Source: an uncultured Pelagibacteraceae bacterium (lineage in GTDB: Bacteria > Pseudomonadota > Alphaproteobacteria > Pelagibacterales > Pelagibacteraceae). From it: a stretch of DNA of 64,000 nucleotides. The position numbers and the translations under genes were made by a program. A model generated the notes under the pieces. It saw only the letters and a list, made by a program, of their open reading frames with translations. It was not told where the DNA came from and ran no database searches. The stretch is taken from positions 496,001 through 560,000 of the forward strand of contig CACNLV010000001.1 of assembly GCA_902621345.1 (NCBI GenBank), in the 5' to 3' direction. Of the stretch, positions 47,290-62,210 are shown piece after piece; position 1 is the first letter of the stretch; every line of letters starts with the position of its first letter.

Positions 47290-47298
47290 TTATTTTAC
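47281..47298. repeat. 18-bp palindrome across the two convergent stop codons
   Basis: GTAAAATAA and TTATTTTAC meet exactly at the boundary of the manC-like gene and the convergent kinase gene. Each half encodes the last Val-Lys-stop of its protein. The symmetry makes the two 3' ends identical for nine bases. It could be coincidence or a minimal bidirectional end signal. Confidence 0.6.
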
Positions 47299-48174
47299 AA
47301 GAAAATTCACTTTTTTATTTGATAGATTTAAATGAATTTTTTTATATGAACCAAAATTATCTCCATCAATTTGAACAGGTATCAAATCATTTCCATCAAT
47401 TGTAATGTTTTGTGAATAAGTAGTAATAACATTTTTATTTTTACTTAAATCACCATTAAGAATTATTAAAAATATAGAATATAATAAATTGATCCTAGTT
47501 AAATCCTTAAATATATATGTGACTATTTTATTTTCAAAAATATTTGTTTTATTTATTTTATGATGTCCAGCGTAATATTTGGTATTTGAAGATAATATCC
47601 AGTCTGCTTGATAAAATTGTCCATCAAAAGTAACATTTAATTTTTTATTATTCATAAACAAGAAATATTGAAAACCTTTGATACCAAATATCACTTTTCC
47701 AAGAATTTTTTTAATTTTTGAATTAATTGAATGAACAATTTTTGCATCCCATCCTATACCAGCCATTAAAAAGAAATAATTCTCGTTAATTTTTACAAGA
47801 TTAGAGGATTTATAATTATTAGAAATCAATACATTGACTATATCATCAATCTTTTTATTCATTGATAATTCAGCTTGCAGTAAATTTGCAGTCCCAGCAG
47901 GTATATAGCCTATAGCAAAATCGTCTTTAAAATTAAAATCATTCTTTATTAATTCATTAATTGCAAAAGAAACAGATCCATCTCCACCAGCAACTATTAA
48001 TCGATCATAATTTTTTTGATTAAAGTTTTTAAAAATTTTCTTAGCTTGATTTATTGTTTTGGTCTCAAAGTATTCTACTGAATTATTTTCTTTTAACTTA
48101 GATAAAACCCTATTTATGAATTTTGATTTTCTTCCAGAGGAAGAGTTTTGATTGTAAATTAAACAATACAACAT
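47290..48174 (-). CDS. Diacylglycerol kinase family protein (YegS/LCB5-like)
   Basis: The 294-residue protein belongs to the soluble lipid kinase family with a DAGK catalytic domain. Visible motifs are NQNSSSGRKSK at the N-terminus, the nucleotide-binding VAGGDGSVSFAINEL, IGYIPAGTANLLQAEL and AGIGWDAKIV. The likely reaction is phosphorylation of diacylglycerol to phosphatidic acid. It diverges from the plcP-like gene, whose product would release diacylglycerol, and a minus-strand Pho-box candidate lies 66 bases upstream of its start. Exact substrate specificity cannot be read from the sequence. Confidence 0.88.
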   Translation of the reverse strand: MLYCLIYNQNSSSGRKSKFINRVLSKLKENNSVEYFETKTINQAKKIFKNFNQKNYDRLIVAGGDGSVSFAINELIKNDFNFKDDFAIGYIPAGTANLLQAELSMNKKIDDIVNVLISNNYKSSNLVKINENYFFLMAGIGWDAKIVHSINSKIKKILGKVIFGIKGFQYFLFMNNKKLNVTFDGQFYQADWILSSNTKYYAGHHKINKTNIFENKIVTYIFKDLTRINLLYSIFLIILNGDLSKNKNVITTYSQNITIDGNDLIPVQIDGDNFGSYKKIHLNLSNKKVNFLVK

Positions 48175-48193
48175 AATTAATCCTTAAAAAATT

Positions 48194-48211
48194 TTTAACA
48201 AATTTGTAACA
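48194..48211 (+). promoter_or_regulatory. Pho box upstream of plcP-like gene
   Basis: TTTAACA-AATT-TGTAACA is a direct repeat with 11-base period. Its two units are identical to the first two units before pstS. It ends 61 bases before the plcP-like start. PhoB dimers bind such 7-4-7 tandem repeats. Confidence 0.78.
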
Positions 48212-48240
48212 TTTAAATGAAATAAGAAATACATGATTCG

Positions 48241-48258
48241 TGTTACAGTTGTATTAAA
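48241..48258 (-). promoter_or_regulatory. Pho box candidate upstream of diacylglycerol kinase gene
   Basis: Read on the minus strand the sequence is TTTAATA-CAAC-TGTAACA, one mismatch from the plcP-side repeat. It ends 66 bases before the kinase start, nearly the same distance as the opposing box from plcP. A third, weak unit (TCATGTA) follows in phase. Confidence 0.6.
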
Positions 48259-48272
48259 ATATAGGCCTTTAA

Positions 48273-49085
48273 ATGCCTAACATACTTAAATACAAAAGCA
48301 TTTTTATTTCTGATGTGCATTTGGGTACCAAGGGTTGTCAGGCGAAAAAACTTTTAGAGTTTTTTAAAAACTCAAGATCTGAAAATCTTTATCTTGTAGG
48401 AGACATTATAGATGTCTGGGAAATGCAAAAAAGTTTTTTTTGGCCTCAAGAACATAATGATGTAATCCAAAAAATTTTAAGAAAAGCAAGACATGGCACT
48501 AAAGTTTTCTATATTATGGGCAACCATGATGAAATGTTAAGAAAATTTATTCCAATGAATTTTGGTGACATCCATATGGTTAATAGAGTTATTCATGAGA
48601 CAAATGCTGGAAAAAAATATGTTGTTGTTCATGGTGATGCTTGGGATGGTGTTATGAAACATGCTAAATGGCTATCTAAACTTGGATCAATAGCTTACAA
48701 TTTATTGTTACAAATAAATGTAATAATTAATTTCTTTAGAAGGTTGAGAGGAAAAGAATATTGGTCTCTTGCAAAATATTTAAAATATAAGGTTAAGAAC
48801 GCCGTCAAATATATTGGTGAATATGAAAAAACACTCTCAGATTATGCAAAAAGAAAAAAATTTGATGGAATAATTTGTGGCCATATCCATCATGCTGAGG
48901 ATAGAGATTTTAATGGGGTCAATTATTTAAATTGTGGAGACTGGGTAGAATCTTGCACTGCATTAGCCGAAAATTACGATGGTAGCTTTGAAATATTATA
49001 TTGGGATAAAATAAGAGAACAATATTTAGACACTCAAGAAATAATTAAACCTATTAAAAATGAAGACTTAAAAAAAGCTTCGTAA
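48273..49085 (+). CDS. plcP: PlcP-like metallophosphoesterase (phospholipase C, lipid renovation)
   Basis: The 270-residue protein is a calcineurin-like phosphoesterase related to LpxH. Metal-site motifs are FISDVHLG (Asp14, His16), LVGDIIDVWE (Asp44), IMGNHDEM (Asn84, His85), VVVHGDAWDG and ICGHIHHAE. LpxI already covers the LpxH step here. The adjacent lipid glycosyltransferase and Pho box match the PlcP-Agt pair that SAR11 and rhizobia use to turn phospholipids into diacylglycerol and then glycolipids under phosphate starvation (Carini et al. 2015; Sebastian et al. 2016). The function is inferred from family and context. Confidence 0.85.
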   Translation: MPNILKYKSIFISDVHLGTKGCQAKKLLEFFKNSRSENLYLVGDIIDVWEMQKSFFWPQEHNDVIQKILRKARHGTKVFYIMGNHDEMLRKFIPMNFGDIHMVNRVIHETNAGKKYVVVHGDAWDGVMKHAKWLSKLGSIAYNLLLQINVIINFFRRLRGKEYWSLAKYLKYKVKNAVKYIGEYEKTLSDYAKRKKFDGIICGHIHHAEDRDFNGVNYLNCGDWVESCTALAENYDGSFEILYWDKIREQYLDTQEIIKPIKNEDLKKAS

Positions 49086-49088
49086 TTA

Positions 49089-50096
49089 ATGAAAATTTTA
49101 ATCGCAACAGATGCATATTTTCCACAAGTAAATGGTGTTGTAAGAACCTTGCATGAAACAGGTAAAATTTTAAAAGAACAAGGTCATAGAATAGAATATA
49201 TCACACCAGAATTATTTTTAACTTTTCCGATGCCAAAATATAATGAAATTAGAATATCTATTAATGTTTGGCCAAGAGTTGGTAGCTTAATAAAGAAAAT
49301 AAAACCTGATGCAATTCATATAGCTACTGAAGGTCCTATAGGGACTATGGCAAGAAGATATTGTTTGAAGAATAAACTAAAGTTTACCACAAGTTTTCAT
49401 ACAAGATTTGATAAATATCTTAAGCTTTACTTTCCTATTATACCTGCAAAATGGGCTGAAAAATTCTTAGCAAACTTTCATAACAAGGCTGAGAGAATCT
49501 TAGTAACAACAGAATCTATGAGAAAAGAATTAATCGATATAGGTATAGATAATAATAAAATGATTACTTGGACAAGAGGAGGCAATCATGGAGCTTTTAA
49601 GAGTCCGAAAAAAATTGATTTACCACATAAAAGACCGATTTGGATTTATGTTGGAAGAGTTGCAGTTGAAAAAAACATAAGAGCTTTTTTAGAATGTGAT
49701 TTAGAGGGTACAAAAATGATAATAGGAAAGGGACCTGATTTAAAAAAATTAAAAAAAGAATTTCCTAAAGATATTTTTTTAGGAGAAAAAACAAACGGTG
49801 AATTAGCGTCTCATTTTGCATCTTCCGATGTTTTTGTATTTCCAAGTAAAACAGATACATTTGGAATTGTAGTTTGTGAGTCTTTAAATTGCGGAACACC
49901 TGTAGCTGCTTATCCTGTTCCAGGTCCTAAAGATATATTTGAGGGTTCCAAAATAAATTGTTTAGATAATGATCTTAAAGTTTCAGCTCATAAAGCTTTG
50001 AAAGTTAATAGAAATGATTGTCTTGAATTTGCAAAAAAATTCACTTGGGAAGAAACAGCAAAAATATTTTTTAACAATATTTCACCAAATCATTAG
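49089..50096 (+). CDS. GT4 glycosyltransferase, probable diacylglycerol glycosyltransferase (Agt-like)
   Basis: The 335-residue protein has the two-domain GT4 fold. The N-terminus, LIATDAYFPQVNGVVRTLHET, resembles SqdX/DgdA-type lipid glycosyltransferases. The C-terminal donor site includes YVGRVAVEKNIRAFL, FVFPSKTDTFGIVVCESLNCG and the family EX7E. It starts three bases after the plcP-like gene, so it should receive the diacylglycerol that PlcP makes and yield glucosyl or glucuronosyl diacylglycerol. The sugar used cannot be told from sequence. Confidence 0.85.
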   Translation: MKILIATDAYFPQVNGVVRTLHETGKILKEQGHRIEYITPELFLTFPMPKYNEIRISINVWPRVGSLIKKIKPDAIHIATEGPIGTMARRYCLKNKLKFTTSFHTRFDKYLKLYFPIIPAKWAEKFLANFHNKAERILVTTESMRKELIDIGIDNNKMITWTRGGNHGAFKSPKKIDLPHKRPIWIYVGRVAVEKNIRAFLECDLEGTKMIIGKGPDLKKLKKEFPKDIFLGEKTNGELASHFASSDVFVFPSKTDTFGIVVCESLNCGTPVAAYPVPGPKDIFEGSKINCLDNDLKVSAHKALKVNRNDCLEFAKKFTWEETAKIFFNNISPNH

Positions 50097-50161: not shown

Positions 50162-51307
50162 ATGGAATATTTCATCATTCTACTTATAGTTGTTATAATT
50201 TATCTCCTCTATTTACTTAATCAAAAAAAAAACAAATCAATAAATACTGCTACAATAATTAATAAAAGAGAGGAAAAAACCAAAAGAGTAATTATTGATG
50301 AGCTTGAGGATCAATTTTTTGCATTAAATAAATTTAACATAATTAAATATGCCAATCCAAGTGCATTAAAAAGATTTGGAAGTAATTTAATTGATAAAAA
50401 CATATCTTCTATAATTCGAAAACCAGAATTAATAGAAAATATTGAAAAAGCTATTGTTGAAAATAAAACAAAAAATATTGACATTGAAATAGACCTCCCA
50501 TCATATCAATTCTATAAAATTTATATTATTCCTGGCCCAACTCATTTGTTTACTGAACCAGACTCTGTTGTGTTATTTTTAAAAGATTTTACTGAAATTA
50601 CAAAAGCACAAAAATTTAAAACTGATTTTGTAGCAAATGTAAGCCATGAATTAAGAACACCTTTAATGGCAATCAAAGGATCACTAGAAACAATTGAGGG
50701 CCCAGCGTCTGATGATGAAAAGGCTAAAAAAAAATTTATGAAAATAATGACTGATCAATCAAATAGAATGGAAAATTTAATTAATGATCTTTTAATACTC
50801 ACAAGAATTGAATTAGAGGAACACATAAGGCCAAACTCTTTAGTTGATATAAATGATCTTTTCAAAACAATCATCAGTAATTTTGAGATTATTTTAAAAA
50901 GAAAGAAATTAAATATTAATTTATCTCTCGCCAATCCAACAGTTGTTATTGGAGATGAAAAAAAATTACAAACTGTTTTTTCTAATCTTTTAGATAATGC
51001 AATTAAGTATTCAAAGGAAAATAAGTCTATTTTTATATCAAGCAAAATTAGCGATGGTAAATTGTTAGAAAAAAATTTTATGATCAGTATTAAAGACGAA
51101 GGTGTTGGCATTCCTCAAAGATATATTTCTAGAATTACAGAAAGATTTTTTAGGGTAGATCTTGAACAAAGTAACAAGGTTGGTGGAACCGGTTTAGGAT
51201 TAGCTATTGTTAAACATATAGTTACTCAACATCGTGGACACTATGAGATTCTAAGTGAGGAAAACCAAGGAACTGAAATTCAAATTTATTTACCAGCGAA
51301 AACTTAA
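50162..51307 (+). CDS. phoR: Phosphate regulon sensor histidine kinase PhoR
   Basis: PhoR phosphorylates PhoB when phosphate is scarce, under the control of PstSCAB and PhoU. The 381-residue protein has a single N-terminal membrane segment (residues 3-20), a divergent PAS-like region (about 40-150), the H-box FVANVSHELRTPLMAIKG with His162, and the ATPase motifs LLDNAIKYSKEN, DEGVGIP and GGTGLGLAIVKHIV. It lacks a large periplasmic domain, as in E. coli PhoR. It is separated from phoB by the whole pst operon. Confidence 0.92.
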   Translation: MEYFIILLIVVIIYLLYLLNQKKNKSINTATIINKREEKTKRVIIDELEDQFFALNKFNIIKYANPSALKRFGSNLIDKNISSIIRKPELIENIEKAIVENKTKNIDIEIDLPSYQFYKIYIIPGPTHLFTEPDSVVLFLKDFTEITKAQKFKTDFVANVSHELRTPLMAIKGSLETIEGPASDDEKAKKKFMKIMTDQSNRMENLINDLLILTRIELEEHIRPNSLVDINDLFKTIISNFEIILKRKKLNINLSLANPTVVIGDEKKLQTVFSNLLDNAIKYSKENKSIFISSKISDGKLLEKNFMISIKDEGVGIPQRYISRITERFFRVDLEQSNKVGGTGLGLAIVKHIVTQHRGHYEILSEENQGTEIQIYLPAKT

Positions 51308-51397: not shown

Positions 51398-52006
51398 ATG
51401 GTTAAAATATTTAAAAATATTTTGATTTTTGCTTTTTTATTAAGCTCTATAACAACAAGTGTTTTTTCTAAAGATATAACAACATTATTAAGAAATCAGC
51501 AACTTACAGTTTTTGATATTGGAATTTTTAGATTAGAGGCAGATTTGAAAACTTCATATCCTTCTATTAAAGATCATTTAGAAGTTACTGAAGCTGAATT
51601 TTATACAGACGTAGTTACCTCGTATTCTAAAAATTCAATTGATTTAATTGTTTCTGTTCCTATGAATAGAAATCTCAAGAAGGAAAATTATTTTTCAGAT
51701 TCTTTTAGATGTAGGAATATTTTTAATTCTGTAAGAGATTTTTTATTGAGGAATGAAAATTTGAGTAATTATAGATATACTATGGCTACAAGCTATTTAA
51801 CCTCTATATTTTCAACCCCAAGTTCATGGCCAAGCTGGAGATATGATGAAGAAATTAGAGAGGAATTAGTAAACTTAGTAAAACTAGAAATAACTTTACG
51901 TCCAACCAAAGAACTAGCTCTTAATGAACAGGTAAACCCTGTTTCATGTATTGGTGGCTTAGAAACTGATATTGATCAAATAATTATATCAAAAAAATAC
52001 AACTAA
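51398..52006 (+). CDS. Unrecognised secreted protein between phoR and pstS
   Basis: I do not recognise a family. The 202-residue protein has a clear signal peptide (IFKNILIFAFLLSSITTSVFS, cleavage near residue 24), so it is likely periplasmic. The mature part has exactly two Cys residues (105 and 184), which could form one disulfide. There is a Trp/Pro-rich patch, STPSSWPSWRYDEEI, and no membrane segment, lipobox or barrel-like C-terminus. A Pho-box candidate precedes it, and pstS with its own Pho box follows 109 bases later. Context suggests a role in phosphate starvation, but the activity is unknown. Confidence 0.85.
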   Translation: MVKIFKNILIFAFLLSSITTSVFSKDITTLLRNQQLTVFDIGIFRLEADLKTSYPSIKDHLEVTEAEFYTDVVTSYSKNSIDLIVSVPMNRNLKKENYFSDSFRCRNIFNSVRDFLLRNENLSNYRYTMATSYLTSIFSTPSSWPSWRYDEEIREELVNLVKLEITLRPTKELALNEQVNPVSCIGGLETDIDQIIISKKYN

Positions 52007-52017
52007 AAAGTTACCTT

Positions 52018-52046
52018 TTTAACAAAAGTGTAACAATTCTGTAATA
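52018..52046 (+). promoter_or_regulatory. Triple Pho box upstream of pstS
   Basis: Three seven-base units TTTAACA, TGTAACA and TGTAATA start at 52018, 52029 and 52040, exactly 11 bases apart, with four-base spacers AAAG and ATTC. A weak fourth unit may precede them. This is the classical PhoB tandem-site pattern, ending 69 bases before the pstS start. Confidence 0.88.
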
Positions 52047-52115
52047 TTAAAGATTCAATAAATTTATACGAGTCAATCATTTTTTAATTAATAAATAACG
52101 AAAGGATTAAAGATA

Positions 52116-53203: not shown

Positions 53204-53238
53204 AAAAAAAGAGTAAAGTCCTCACTTAAGGAGATTCT

Positions 53239-57352: not shown

Positions 57353-58036
57353 ATGTCAGCTCATGTTTTCATAGCTGAAGATGAAGCATCAATTGTTAGT
57401 TTGTTAAAGTACAATCTTGAAAAAGAAGGTTATAAAGTCAGTCATTCAGAAAATGGAGAAGATGCTCTTAAACAAATAAAATTAAAACAGCCAGATTTAA
57501 TATTAATGGATTGGATGTTACCAGAATTATCTGGTGTTGAAATTTGTAAAAACTTAAAAAAAGATAATAAGTTTAATGATATTCCTGTCATTATGTTAAC
57601 TGCAAAGGGGGAGGAAGAAGACAAATTAAAAGCATTTGATACAGGTGCAGATGATTATGTAACTAAACCTTTTAGTCAAAAAGAATTGAATGCTAGAATT
57701 AAATCTTTATTGAGAAGATCTAAACCTCAATCATCATCAGACATTGTAGAATTTACTGATTTAAAAATAGATCGGATTACAAAAAGAGTTTATAGAAAAG
57801 ATAAAGAAATTACTTTGGGTCCAACTGAATTTAAACTCTTAGATTTTTTTATCAAAAATCCAAAAAGAGTTTATTCAAGAGAACAACTCTTAAACAATGT
57901 TTGGGGAGAAAATATATATGTTGAGTCTAGAACAGTTGATGTTCATATTAGAAGATTAAGACAAGCAATTAACATACAAAATACAAAACCTTTAATTAGA
58001 ACAGTAAGATCAGCTGGTTATTCTTTAGAATCTTGA
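57353..58036 (+). CDS. phoB: Phosphate regulon response regulator PhoB
   Basis: PhoB activates phosphate-starvation genes by binding Pho boxes. The 227-residue protein has a receiver domain with Asp53 (LILMDWMLPELSG) and Lys in DDYVTKPFS. A C-terminal winged-helix OmpR-type domain follows (TLGPTEFKLLDFFIKNPKRVYSREQLLNNVWG and VDVHIRRLRQAI). The Pho boxes found in this window are its expected targets. Its 3' end overlaps the convergent sixA by 19 bases. Confidence 0.97.
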   Translation: MSAHVFIAEDEASIVSLLKYNLEKEGYKVSHSENGEDALKQIKLKQPDLILMDWMLPELSGVEICKNLKKDNKFNDIPVIMLTAKGEEEDKLKAFDTGADDYVTKPFSQKELNARIKSLLRRSKPQSSSDIVEFTDLKIDRITKRVYRKDKEITLGPTEFKLLDFFIKNPKRVYSREQLLNNVWGENIYVESRTVDVHIRRLRQAINIQNTKPLIRTVRSAGYSLES

Positions 58037-58542
58037 AGATCTTTGGGTCTTATAAATTTTTTTAATACTCCCTTTTTCTCAACTTCATTCCAGGATTTAA
58101 TATCAAACTCAATTTTTGCAAATGCTGCTGTTGGGAATTTATAATTCATTAGTTTAAAATTATTCGTATTATGATTTTTTGTAAGATTTCGTACTAAATT
58201 TTTCACTGATGGTTCATGATTTATAATCAAAATTGATTTATATTCACTGGATATTTCTTTAATTTTTTTTACAATTGCATTCTCATCAACTAAATATAAA
58301 TCTTTTGAAAAATTAACTTTTTTTGGCTTATTAATTTTCTTGGATAAAATTTGAAAAGTTTTTTTTGTTCTTTTTGATGATGAAATTAATGCATAATCAA
58401 ATTCAAATTTTTTTTTAACAAAAAATTCACAAATCATTTTTGCATTTTTCTTGCCTCTTTTAGTAAGTGGTCTATCAAAATCATTAATACTTAAATCATC
58501 CCAACTAGATTTTGCGTGTCTCATGACGTATAATTGATACAT
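58018..58542 (-). CDS. sixA: SixA-type histidine phosphatase
   Basis: The histidine-phosphatase-superfamily protein has the RHG-type motif LYVMRHAKSSWDD, a second catalytic region at SSSKRTKKTFQIL and the late His in ILIINHEPSVKNLV. SixA in E. coli dephosphorylates phosphohistidine proteins. The track ORF (205 residues) starts inside ppk. I use the ATG at 58542 (MYQLYVMRH), giving 174 residues and an N-terminus normal for the family. It diverges from ppk across only 13 bases. Confidence 0.88.
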   Translation of the reverse strand: MYQLYVMRHAKSSWDDLSINDFDRPLTKRGKKNAKMICEFFVKKKFEFDYALISSSKRTKKTFQILSKKINKPKKVNFSKDLYLVDENAIVKKIKEISSEYKSILIINHEPSVKNLVRNLTKNHNTNNFKLMNYKFPTAAFAKIEFDIKSWNEVEKKGVLKKFIRPKDLQDSKE

Positions 58543-58555
58543 AAAATCTAAATAT

Positions 58556-60712
58556 ATGACTGCTTTAAAAAAACAACATAAAGAAGAGTTGAAATCTAAA
58601 TATATAAATAGAGAGCTTTCTTGGTTAAAATTCAACGATAGAGTACTTTTAGAGGCGCAAAATATCGAAAATCCTCTTTATGAAAGAGTAAAGTTTTTAT
58701 CAATTGCTGGGTCTAATCTAGATGAATTTTTTATGGTCCGTGTAGCTGGGTTATATAGTCAAATAAAACAAGAAGTTGACTCACTAAGCTCTGATGGTTT
58801 GACACCTGAAGAGCAAATGGATGAGGTAGTGCTTGAAACTAAGAATCTATTAAAAAAACAGAACAAAATTTTTATTCAACTGATTATGGAATTAAAAAAA
58901 AATAATATCAATTTAGTTAAACCAGTTAATTTAAATACTAAGGATAAAAAAAAACTTTTAGAAATATTTAAAGAAGAGATTTACCCTTTATTAACACCAT
59001 CAGCAATTGATCCCGCACATCCATTTCCATTTATAATCAATCAAGGAAGAGCAATTGTAATGAAGTTAAGAAAAAAAAATAAAAAAAGGATTTTAAACTC
59101 AATAATAGTAATACCAAAAGCATTATCTAGATTTATTGAAATTGAGTCTTCAAAAAATCATAAGAAATTTGTGATTCTAGATGATGTAATAAGTTTTTTT
59201 GCTAATGAAATTTTTCCAGATCATGATTTAGAAAAGAAAATGATTTTTAGAGTAATAAGAGACAGCGATGTAGAGATTCAAGAGGAAGCAGAAGATTTGG
59301 TTAGATCTTTTGAATTGGCTTTAAAAAGACGTAGAACGGGTGATATTGTTCGTTTAGAGGTTCTTGAAAATAGTGATAACGAATTGATAAGATTTATAAC
59401 TAATAAATTAGATATAAATCCTGACTATATTTATGATGTTGCTGGCCTTGTTGGAATTCAAGATATAGATCAAATATGTAAAGTAAAAAATCCAAAATTA
59501 AGATTTAAACATTTTACACCTAGAGAAGTTGAAAGATTAAAAGAATATAATGAAAATTTTTTTGAAACTATTAAAAAGAAAGATTTAGTTGTTCATCATC
59601 CTTTTGAAACATTTGACTCAGTAATTGAATTTTTAAACCAAGCAGCAAATGATAAAAAAGTTATAGCTATAAAACAAACTCTATATAGAACAACTCTAGA
59701 CTCACCTATTGTTAAAGCTTTAATAACAGCTGCAGAAAACGGAAAAACAGTTACCGCTTTAATTGAAATTAAAGCTAGATTTGATGAGGAAGCTAATATT
59801 CAACTATCAAGAAGTTTAGAAAAAGTAGGTGTTCAAATTGTTTATGGTTTTGCTAAATATAAAACTCATGCAAAATCATCATTAGTTTTAAGAAGAGAAC
59901 AGGGTAAAATACAAACTTATTTTCATTTAGGAACTGGCAATTATCATCCAGTAAATGCTAAAATTTATACTGATTTGTCTTTATTTAGTTGTGATAAGAA
60001 AATGGCATCAGATGTTGAAAAGTTTTTCAATTATGTAACAGGATACGCAAAACCAAAAAATTTAAATAAAATTTCTATTTCGCCAGTAAATATGAGGCAA
60101 ACCTTAAATGAAAATATTGATGCTGAAATTAAAAATTCTAAAAATGGAAAATTTGCAGCTATTTGGGCAAAAATGAACTCTTTAGTAGATCCAGAAATTA
60201 TTGATAAATTTTATGAAGCTTCGAATGCTGGTGTAAAAATTCATTTATTTGTAAGGGGTGTTTGTTGTTTAAGACCAGGAGTAAAAGATAGATCAGAAAA
60301 CATATTTGTAAAAAGTATCATAGGAAGATTTTTAGAGCATTCTAGAATTTACTGCTTTAGTAATGGTACAAAAAAAATGCCTAATAGAAATGCAAAAGTA
60401 TATATTTCGTCAGCTGATTTAATGCCGAGAAATTTAAATCGAAGGGTAGAACTTCTAGTCCCAATTGAAAATGAGACTGTTCATGAACAGATCTTAGATC
60501 AAATAATGTTGGCAAATTATCTTGATACTAATCAGAGCTGGGAACTTGAAGCTGATGGTAATTATAAAAAAATTAAATATAGTAAGAGCGATTCCTTTTC
60601 AGCTCATGAATATTTTATGAATAATCCGAGCTTATCTGGAAGAGGTAAAGCTAAACTAAGAATGCAGCCTAAACAACTGCACTTAAGATTGATTAAAAGT
60701 GGAAGTAATTAA
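58556..60712 (+). CDS. ppk: Polyphosphate kinase (PPK1)
   Basis: PPK1 makes polyphosphate from ATP. The 718-residue protein opens with INRELSWLKFNDRVL and has GSNLDEFFMVRVAGL, TLYRT, and the two HKD-type catalytic regions around YAKYKTHAKSSLVLRRE (written FAKYKTHAKSSLV here) and TYFHLGTGNYHP with the phospho-acceptor His. It sits downstream of pst-pho and overlaps ppx by 14 bases. No Pho box is visible in the 13-base gap to sixA. Confidence 0.96.
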   Translation: MTALKKQHKEELKSKYINRELSWLKFNDRVLLEAQNIENPLYERVKFLSIAGSNLDEFFMVRVAGLYSQIKQEVDSLSSDGLTPEEQMDEVVLETKNLLKKQNKIFIQLIMELKKNNINLVKPVNLNTKDKKKLLEIFKEEIYPLLTPSAIDPAHPFPFIINQGRAIVMKLRKKNKKRILNSIIVIPKALSRFIEIESSKNHKKFVILDDVISFFANEIFPDHDLEKKMIFRVIRDSDVEIQEEAEDLVRSFELALKRRRTGDIVRLEVLENSDNELIRFITNKLDINPDYIYDVAGLVGIQDIDQICKVKNPKLRFKHFTPREVERLKEYNENFFETIKKKDLVVHHPFETFDSVIEFLNQAANDKKVIAIKQTLYRTTLDSPIVKALITAAENGKTVTALIEIKARFDEEANIQLSRSLEKVGVQIVYGFAKYKTHAKSSLVLRREQGKIQTYFHLGTGNYHPVNAKIYTDLSLFSCDKKMASDVEKFFNYVTGYAKPKNLNKISISPVNMRQTLNENIDAEIKNSKNGKFAAIWAKMNSLVDPEIIDKFYEASNAGVKIHLFVRGVCCLRPGVKDRSENIFVKSIIGRFLEHSRIYCFSNGTKKMPNRNAKVYISSADLMPRNLNRRVELLVPIENETVHEQILDQIMLANYLDTNQSWELEADGNYKKIKYSKSDSFSAHEYFMNNPSLSGRGKAKLRMQPKQLHLRLIKSGSN

Positions 60713-62210
60713 AAGTAAAAATAGTTTAAAATTAAATCAGGCAAAATTAGCTATAATAGACATTGGATCAAACTCTATAAGAATGCTAATTTATGAAGAT
60801 TTCAGTTCTTCTCGTGTGCCTTTTTTTAATGAAAAAGCAGTTTGTGAACTTGGAAAAAATTTAGATAAATCCAAAAAACTTCACAGATCTGGTACCGAAT
60901 ATGCTTTAAAAGTTTTAAAAAGATTCTCTGAAATTTTAAATGTTTCAAAAATCACAAATCTTAAAATCATTGCAACAGCAGTTTTAAGAGAAGCGACTGA
61001 TACAAAACCATTTATTAATGAAGTTGAAAAACTTTTTAAAACTAAGATTAATATATTATCTGGTGAAGAAGAAGCTGAATGCTCAGCTGAGGGAGTAAAA
61101 ATAGGCTTTGAAAATGTCAATGGATTAGTTGCTGATCTTGGAGGTGGAAGTTTAGAATTAGCTCGAGTTGAAAATAATATAGTTACTAATAAAACCTCAT
61201 TACCTATTGGAGTTTTAAGATTATTAAATAATCCTTTAGTTAAAAAAAGAAATTTAGCAAAATATATCAAAAAATTATTAAGAGAAGAAAAATGGCTTTC
61301 AAAAAAGAAATTTAATAATCTATATTTAGTTGGAGGTACCTGGCGAGCATTATTTAAATTACATCTTTTTCAAAATAATCATCCGGTACATATAATTCAT
61401 CAATATAGTATTGATAACAATGTTTTATCTAGGTTTGTTGAAAAAATTTCATCTTTTAATAAATCTAAACTTAAAACAGTTGAGTATATTTCAAAATCTA
61501 GAACAGCGTATTTACCTTATAGTTGCATTATACTTGATGAAATTATGAGAGTTACAAATCCAAGAAATATAATTTGTTCTATAAGCGGTTTGCGTGAAGG
61601 TTCTTTATCAATTGACTATTTTAAAGATGTAAAAGAATCAGAAATTTTTCATAAAGCACTTGAGAATATTGCAAAAAAAAGAGGTGATCTAGGATCGAAC
61701 TATAAAAAATATTATGATTTTATTCAGCCAGTTTTTGAAGGCAATGAACATTTTAATAAGAAATTATTATATCTGGCATGTGTATTAAGTCATATGGATT
61801 GGGGATTAGGAGCATTTCAAAAAGCTGAATTGGTATTTCAAGAAACAATAAATACTCCTTTACTTAGATTGACTCATAAAGAAAGAATACAATTAGCTTT
61901 GTCATGTTATTGGCGGTACTGTAGTATCAAGTATAATCCAAAGATGGAGTATCTAACTTTTTTAAATAATAATGAAATTTTTTCAAGCAAACAAGTTGGA
62001 GCAGCATTGAGATTTTCACAATCATTGACCTCGATATCTACGATATTTCTTGAAGAGTTTAAATTGTATAAAAGAGGTAATGCTGTATTTTTAAAAATTC
62101 CATCACAACATCAAGAAATAATCTCAAAACAAGTTACTAAAAGATTTAAAGCTCTTGCTAGAGAATTATTTTTAGAACCAAGAGTAATTTACTCAAATAA
62201 TTCAAGATAA
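60699..62210 (+). CDS. ppx: Exopolyphosphatase / pppGpp phosphohydrolase (Ppx/GppA)
   Basis: Ppx/GppA proteins hydrolyse polyphosphate or pppGpp. The 503-residue protein has the actin-like ATPase motifs LAIIDIGSNSIRMLIYED, ATAVLREATD, LSGEEEAECSAEG and VADLGGGSLELARV in its N-terminal two domains. A C-terminal HD-like helical region follows. The GTG start at 60699 lies inside ppk and is the only one that keeps the first ATPase strand. A paired ppk-ppx operon gives control of the polyphosphate pool. Confidence 0.94.
   Translation: MEVIKSKNSLKLNQAKLAIIDIGSNSIRMLIYEDFSSSRVPFFNEKAVCELGKNLDKSKKLHRSGTEYALKVLKRFSEILNVSKITNLKIIATAVLREATDTKPFINEVEKLFKTKINILSGEEEAECSAEGVKIGFENVNGLVADLGGGSLELARVENNIVTNKTSLPIGVLRLLNNPLVKKRNLAKYIKKLLREEKWLSKKKFNNLYLVGGTWRALFKLHLFQNNHPVHIIHQYSIDNNVLSRFVEKISSFNKSKLKTVEYISKSRTAYLPYSCIILDEIMRVTNPRNIICSISGLREGSLSIDYFKDVKESEIFHKALENIAKKRGDLGSNYKKYYDFIQPVFEGNEHFNKKLLYLACVLSHMDWGLGAFQKAELVFQETINTPLLRLTHKERIQLALSCYWRYCSIKYNPKMEYLTFLNNNEIFSSKQVGAALRFSQSLTSISTIFLEEFKLYKRGNAVFLKIPSQHQEIISKQVTKRFKALARELFLEPRVIYSNNSR

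What the first reader, a model, noticed from the sequence alone, without database searches (positions are those of the whole stretch)
47290..50096. A complete phosphate-starvation lipid-renovation cassette with paired divergent Pho boxes
A plcP-like phosphoesterase gene and a GT4 lipid glycosyltransferase gene diverge from a diacylglycerol kinase gene. The 98-base intergenic space holds one Pho-type repeat on each strand: TTTAACA-N4-TGTAACA toward plcP and TTTAATA-N4-TGTAACA toward the kinase. They sit 61 and 66 bases from the respective starts. PlcP plus glycosyltransferase as the SAR11 lipid switch is established. Pho control of a diacylglycerol kinase in the same module is, as far as I know, not described. 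A kinase would return excess diacylglycerol to phosphatidate, making the system adjustable in both directions.
Basis: partly seen in the sequence, partly recalled or inferred. Interest (0 to 1): 0.75.

Follow-up and report, generated by a model that had tools for sequence, protein, structure and literature searches.

The report
Phosphate-switched lipid-kinase promoter in SAR11
An ocean bacterium of the SAR11 group keeps a lipid-recycling kinase gene back to back with its known phosphate-starvation lipid-swapping genes, and in one branch of the group the kinase has its own phosphate switch, suggesting that the membrane swap comes with a built-in way to rebuild phospholipid precursors.

Summary
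A 98-nt gap separates a DAGK_cat lipid kinase (-) from plcP-GT4 (+) and holds one Pho repeat per strand, at the stated 61 and 66 nt. The motif has only three exact matches in the 1.19-Mb genome: these two and one before pstS. The kinase is a fixed partner of plcP: in the window's genus 80 sampled genomes have plcP and 79 the kinase (the exception is a contig edge), and none has the kinase alone. The two boxes are not equally old. The plcP-facing box is kept in all 43 divergent loci. The kinase-facing box occurs only with one clade of kinase alleles (one change on the kinase tree, at least four on the GT tree), so it travels with the kinase; other lineages keep the divergent kinase without it. 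Every spacer also holds a CcrM site (GANTC), and the genome has GcrA and a CcrM-type methylase. Pho control of this kinase is therefore likely but lineage-specific and untested. It is not without precedent: PHO-dependent DagK beside PlcP is reported in Pseudomonas putida BIRD-1. The diacylglycerol substrate and the 'both directions' role are inference.

The parts
47290..48174 (-). Lipid kinase, probable diacylglycerol kinase (DAGK_cat, DgkB-like)
   Evidence: Pfam DAGK_cat 1.2e-23; DgkB 2qv7 by sequence 4e-20 and by predicted fold; GGDG and catalytic-base Asp invariant in 48 SAR11 homologues
48194..48211 (+). Pho box facing plcP, TTTAACA-AATT-TGTAACA
   Evidence: Exact match; at least 12/14 in all 43 divergent loci
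48241..48258 (-). Pho box facing the kinase, TTTAATA-CAAC-TGTAACA
   Evidence: Exact match; exact in 45 of 46 distinct close spacers; only in one clade of kinase alleles
48235..48239 (.). Conserved GANTC (CcrM-type) site, next to the kinase-facing box
   Evidence: GANTC in 43 of 43 divergent spacers and invariant in 46 close ones
48273..49085 (+). plcP, metallophosphoesterase
   Evidence: Metallophos 8e-13; first gene of the plcP-GT pair described for SAR11 (PMC4796936)
49089..50096 (+). GT4-type lipid glycosyltransferase (agt/GTcp position)
   Evidence: Glyco_transf_4 6e-22; 3 nt after plcP
50162..51307 (+). PhoR sensor kinase
   Evidence: TIGR02966 4.5e-84, below its curated cut-off
52018..52035 (+). 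Pho box of pstS, with a third repeat at 52040-52046
   Evidence: Third exact match in the genome
52116..53147 (+). PstS phosphate-binding protein
   Evidence: PBP_like_2 9e-42, TIGR02136
57353..58036 (+). PhoB-type response regulator
   Evidence: Response_reg and Trans_reg_C, directly after PhoU

Best explanation
It is the SAR11 phosphate-starvation lipid-renovation cassette with a dedicated lipid kinase. When phosphate is scarce, PhoB (inferred) acts at the + box to turn on plcP and the glycosyltransferase. PlcP strips head groups from phospholipids to give diacylglycerol, and the glycosyltransferase makes glycolipid from it (established for HTCC7211 homologues, not tested here). In this clade PhoB also acts at the - box to turn on the kinase (inferred). 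The kinase rephosphorylates unused diacylglycerol to phosphatidate (inferred from homology and from its strict dependence on plcP), so that diacylglycerol does not build up and residual phospholipids can still be made. The kinase is an old, fixed partner of plcP; its own Pho box is a later, clade-specific acquisition inherited with the kinase allele.
For: Both boxes match the pstS box and nothing else in the genome exactly; improbable by chance. The - box keeps its consensus in 45 of 46 close spacers and its 66-nt distance in alleles down to 72% kinase identity. Kinase and plcP co-occur in 79 of 80 genomes of the genus, the exception at a contig edge, and no genome of the genus has the kinase alone. 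No DgkA and no second DAGK_cat protein in the genome. The box follows the kinase tree in one change but not the GT tree (at least 4; p-AU 2e-6). Kinase homologues without plcP in other genera still sit beside pstS or phoR. DgkB-like fold. PHO-dependent DagK with PlcP in Pseudomonas (PMC5082522).
Against: No expression or binding data. Most SAR11 lineages outside the clade keep the kinase without its own box, so Pho activation of the kinase is not general. The + box lies 19 nt from the kinase start, in its predicted leader, where bound PhoB might hinder the kinase. Curated DAG-kinase cut-offs are not reached and the Asp of the GTAND motif is Leu or Ile in all SAR11 homologues.
Confidence: 0.6

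Rival explanations
1. The - box does not activate the kinase but tunes plcP: PhoB bound there, in the plcP leader, limits plcP at high PhoB~P or makes the two promoters mutually exclusive.
For: The - box lies only 14 nt from the plcP start, so it sits between the predicted plcP promoter and its gene.
Against: The box tracks the kinase allele, not plcP (plcP tree: two changes, p-AU 0.03) nor GT; it has the same orientation and similar distance to the kinase (66 nt) as the + box has to plcP (61 nt).
Confidence: 0.15
2. The kinase is mainly driven by a GcrA/CcrM (GANTC) promoter tied to the cell cycle, and PhoB at the + box represses it during starvation; the kinase then serves recovery when phosphate returns. 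The - box is a modifier.
For: GANTC in every spacer, often two about 16-18 nt apart in one-box lineages; GcrA and an N6_N4_Mtase encoded; SAR11 reported to have CcrM (PMC3973325); the + box lies 2 to 19 nt from the kinase start, where bound protein could block it.
Against: In this clade a near-perfect activating-type box stands in the right position. GANTC is also common near other promoters in such genomes, and promoter elements were read by eye only.
Confidence: 0.15
3. The enzyme phosphorylates another lipid (monoacylglycerol, phosphatidylglycerol, a glycolipid) rather than diacylglycerol.
For: No curated NCBIfam DAG-kinase cut-off is reached (PRK13337 112 of 385 bits; TIGR00147 102 of 118.65). 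The superfamily is mixed: sphingosine and acylglycerol kinases also match. The Asp of GTAND is missing.
Against: The closest sequence and fold matches are DgkB-type DAG kinases, and in the genus the gene occurs only where PlcP, which makes diacylglycerol, is present.
Confidence: 0.1

Closest known systems
SAR11 lipid-renovation genes plcP-agt of Pelagibacter HTCC7211 (PMC4796936; GTcp, PMC8231724; Carini 2015, not held)
   Same: plcP directly followed by a GT4 glycosyltransferase; Pho boxes were predicted in plcP clusters in PMC4796936
   Different: The papers read do not discuss a kinase or a second, divergent box; the word kinase is absent from PMC4796936 and PMC8231724
PHO-dependent PlcP and DagK of Pseudomonas putida BIRD-1 (PMC5082522)
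   Same: Diacylglycerol kinase raised by phosphate depletion together with PlcP and called PHO-dependent
   Different: A gammaproteobacterium; no shared divergent promoter with PlcP is described, and DagK is not in the explicit list of proteins lost in the phoBR mutant
Phosphate-related genomic islands of HIMB59 (PMC10734472)
   Same: Island with DGK, LpxH, RfaG, PhoR/PhoB, pstSCAB, ppk, ppx/GppA, SixA and GlpF, nearly the gene list of this window
   Different: There the kinase and glycosyltransferase are said to have no direct function related to P; on the present evidence they may be the lipid-renovation cassette
DgkB soluble diacylglycerol kinase (PDB 2qv7)
   Same: Fold over the full length, GGDG motif and catalytic-base Asp
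   Different: About 22% identity; the Asp of GTAND is Leu or Ile; in the window's genus the gene occurs only with plcP

Membership tests
Pho box / PhoB regulon | Two direct 7-nt repeats separated by 4 nt, shared with pstS of the same genome | tested here: met
   Only three exact matches in the genome: both boxes and pstS
Pho box / PhoB regulon | Conserved in orthologous spacers | tested here: inconclusive
   + box: all 43 divergent loci. - box: only with kinase alleles of 72% identity or more
Pho box / PhoB regulon | PhoB binding and induction by phosphate limitation | not testable with these tools
   No expression or binding data held; Carini 2015 not held
PlcP | Metallophosphoesterase domain and operon with a lipid glycosyltransferase | tested here: met
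PlcP | Identity to a characterised PlcP and phospholipase C activity | not tested
   No characterised PlcP sequence was to hand; PDB matches are weak LpxH hits, NCBIfam LpxH cut-offs are not reached
Soluble diacylglycerol kinase (DgkB type) | DAGK_cat domain, GGDG motif and catalytic-base Asp | tested here: met
Soluble diacylglycerol kinase (DgkB type) | Asp of the GTAND motif and curated equivalog cut-off | tested here: not met
   Leu or Ile in all 48 homologues; 112 of 385 bits for PRK13337, 102 of 118.65 for TIGR00147
Soluble diacylglycerol kinase (DgkB type) | Phosphorylates diacylglycerol | not testable with these tools
   Needs an enzyme assay
Agt/GTcp glycolipid glycosyltransferase | GT4 fold directly after plcP; identity to GTcp | tested here: inconclusive
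GcrA/CcrM-dependent promoter | GcrA and CcrM encoded, GANTC conserved in the promoter region | tested here: met
GcrA/CcrM-dependent promoter | Expression depends on methylation and GcrA | not testable with these tools
   Needs mutants or methylome data

The most novel reading that the evidence does not exclude
The kinase promoter of the SAR11 lipid-renovation module exists in two interchangeable forms spread by allele exchange: an old one built on GANTC (GcrA/CcrM, cell-cycle) sites, in which PhoB on the single + box would hold the kinase down, and a derived one with its own PhoB box. SAR11 populations would then differ in whether phosphatidate is rebuilt during, or only after, phosphate starvation.
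Probability: 0.2. Interest if true: 0.7.

Novelty: new variant of a known kind. Interest (0 to 1): 0.5.

Why it matters
SAR11 is among the most abundant bacteria in the ocean, and its membrane swap under phosphate stress affects marine phosphorus budgets. If the swap carries its own kinase, diacylglycerol is a controlled intermediate and not only a one-way product. The clade-by-clade difference in the kinase promoter offers a directly testable natural comparison. The same gene set is annotated elsewhere as LpxH/RfaG/DGK, and recognising the cassette would change how such islands are read.

Tried and rejected
Chance match: rejected by shuffles and the genome-wide count. Kinase as a general housekeeping DAG kinase: rejected in the genus, since no sampled genome of the genus has it without plcP. 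Both boxes ancestral: disfavoured, as the outgroup genera have only the + box. Minus-strand hits of 9-11/14 in one-box loci are AT-rich matches at wrong distances, several overlapping the + box read on the other strand. Conservation inside the close clade alone is weak evidence for the - box (column permutation p about 0.05, because one consensus position alternates T/C and half of the other columns are also invariant); the case rests on the motif, position and deeper comparison. Carini 2015 and 2014 could not be read. Structure and fold search of the unknown protein at 51398-52006 gave no match.

Full report
Observation. The window lies in a SAR11 (Pelagibacteraceae) genome; its plcP protein is 100% identical to that of several Pelagibacteraceae single-cell genomes. 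The motif TTWAAYA-N4-TGTAACA occurs exactly three times in 1.19 Mb: the two boxes and one before pstS. In 20,000 shuffles of the gap an exact box arose once on each strand and never on both; shuffling the window gave a mean of 0.03 against 3 observed.

Setting. Downstream on the same strand follow PhoR, an unknown protein, PstS, PstC, PstA, PstB, PhoU and PhoB, then polyphosphate kinase and a Ppx/GppA protein, with a histidine phosphatase on the other strand. Kinase, plcP and GT are therefore part of a continuous Pho cluster.

The kinase. It is a DAGK_cat protein, closest by sequence and predicted fold to DgkB. GGDG and the catalytic-base Asp are invariant in 48 SAR11 homologues, but the Asp of the GTAND motif is Leu or Ile in all, and curated DAG-kinase cut-offs are not met. 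'Probable diacylglycerol kinase' is the fair label. The genome has no DgkA and no second DAGK_cat protein.

Partnership. In a sample of 397 family genomes, 80 genomes of the window's genus have plcP and 79 have the kinase. Comparing the two lists by hand, the single exception (G254) has plcP starting 38 nt from a contig end, and no genome of the genus has the kinase without plcP. Outside the genus the match is looser: several genomes show only one of the two, and many are incomplete. The kinase <- -> plcP-GT arrangement is kept in all 40 divergent loci fetched, with kinase identity to the window of 48-89%, and in further genera at 36-39%. PhoR usually follows, with two extra genes in between in some. 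In two other genera a kinase homologue not adjacent to plcP diverges from pstS (L176) or from phoR (L174, L175).

The boxes across SAR11. Close relatives: among 46 distinct 98-nt spacers the - box is exact in 45 and the + box in 40. Divergent relatives: the + box scores at least 12/14 in all 43 loci. The - box is present, 63-66 nt from the kinase, only where the kinase is at least 72% identical; in the 72-77% group it reads TGTAACA-N4-TGTAACT, still a direct repeat. Kinase types at 59-64%, the genera at 48-52% and the deeper genera have no - box. On the kinase tree the two-box state is one clade (support 98, one change). On the GT tree it needs five changes (at least four forced) and one clade is rejected (p-AU 2e-6); on the plcP tree it needs two changes, p-AU 0.03. 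Some loci (L126-L131) have a GT about 94% identical and mostly a PhoR of 84-96% but a kinase of only 59%. So alleles are exchanged, and the kinase-facing box moves with the kinase. Because the outgroup genera are all one-box, gain of the - box inside the window's genus is the simplest reading; it rests on rooting by those genera. Physical linkage of spacer and kinase would by itself help to keep them together, so co-inheritance supports but does not prove a functional link.

GANTC. All 43 divergent spacers, the deeper plcP-linked spacers and all close ones hold at least one GANTC; in the window it lies in TGATTCG at 48234-48240, next to the - box. The window has 96 GANTC against 160 expected from composition, denser outside genes (7 in 2.4 kb against 89 in 61.6 kb). 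The genome encodes GcrA and an N6_N4_Mtase, and SAR11 is reported to have CcrM (PMC3973325). The pstS leader has GANTC in 31 of 31 distinct close sequences. Cell-cycle input is possible; it is not shown.

Mechanism. Shown here: gene content, synteny, motif specificity, clade distribution. Established elsewhere: PlcP makes diacylglycerol and the SAR11 glycosyltransferase glycosylates it (PMC4796936, PMC8231724). Inferred: PhoB binds both boxes; the kinase makes phosphatidate; the kinase buffers the diacylglycerol pool during starvation. The boxes lie in each other's predicted leaders (19 nt from the kinase start and 14 nt from the plcP start), so the two promoters may interfere. Candidate -10 elements were read by eye and are unproven.

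Prior knowledge. [quoted passage not shown] PMC3686209 lists the HTCC7211 kinase, metallophosphoesterase and glycosyltransferase among over-represented gene clusters. PMC10734472 describes HIMB59 islands with DGK, LpxH and RfaG. Carini 2015 reports, by my memory of its abstract, a four-gene cluster raised in starved HTCC7211; whether the kinase is one of the four could not be checked. If it is, the response of the kinase is already known and only the promoter history is new.

Verdict.

Noticed in passing
48235-48239; 52052-52056; 52070-52074; 53233-53237: Conserved GANTC (CcrM-type) sites beside the Pho boxes of the kinase/plcP spacer and of pstS, and just before pstC; the genome encodes GcrA and an N6_N4_Mtase. 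A cell-cycle link to the Pho genes is possible.
   Followed up: partly
51398-52006: Conserved protein of 202 aa between phoR and pstS with no Pfam or NCBIfam match; kept across SAR11 at 39-100% identity; a fairly confident model (pLDDT 83) finds no solved relative.
   Followed up: partly
L126-L131 (kinase, spacer and plcP against GT and PhoR): Mosaic Pho clusters: GT about 94% identical to the window but kinase only 59% and plcP 82%, so the kinase-spacer-plcP block is exchanged between SAR11 lineages.
   Followed up: yes
L133, L134, L138, L144, L145, L151, L152 between GT and PhoR: Two extra genes of about 245 and 275 codons on the opposite strand are inserted between the glycosyltransferase and phoR in unrelated SAR11 lineages.
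   Followed up: no
L176; L174 and L175: Kinase homologues not next to plcP that diverge from pstS (L176, with three Pho repeats before pstS) or from phoR (L174, L175) in other genera of the family.
   Followed up: partly
58018-62210: Histidine phosphatase (SixA-like), polyphosphate kinase and Ppx/GppA genes directly after phoB, nearly the gene list published for HIMB59 phosphate islands.
   Followed up: no
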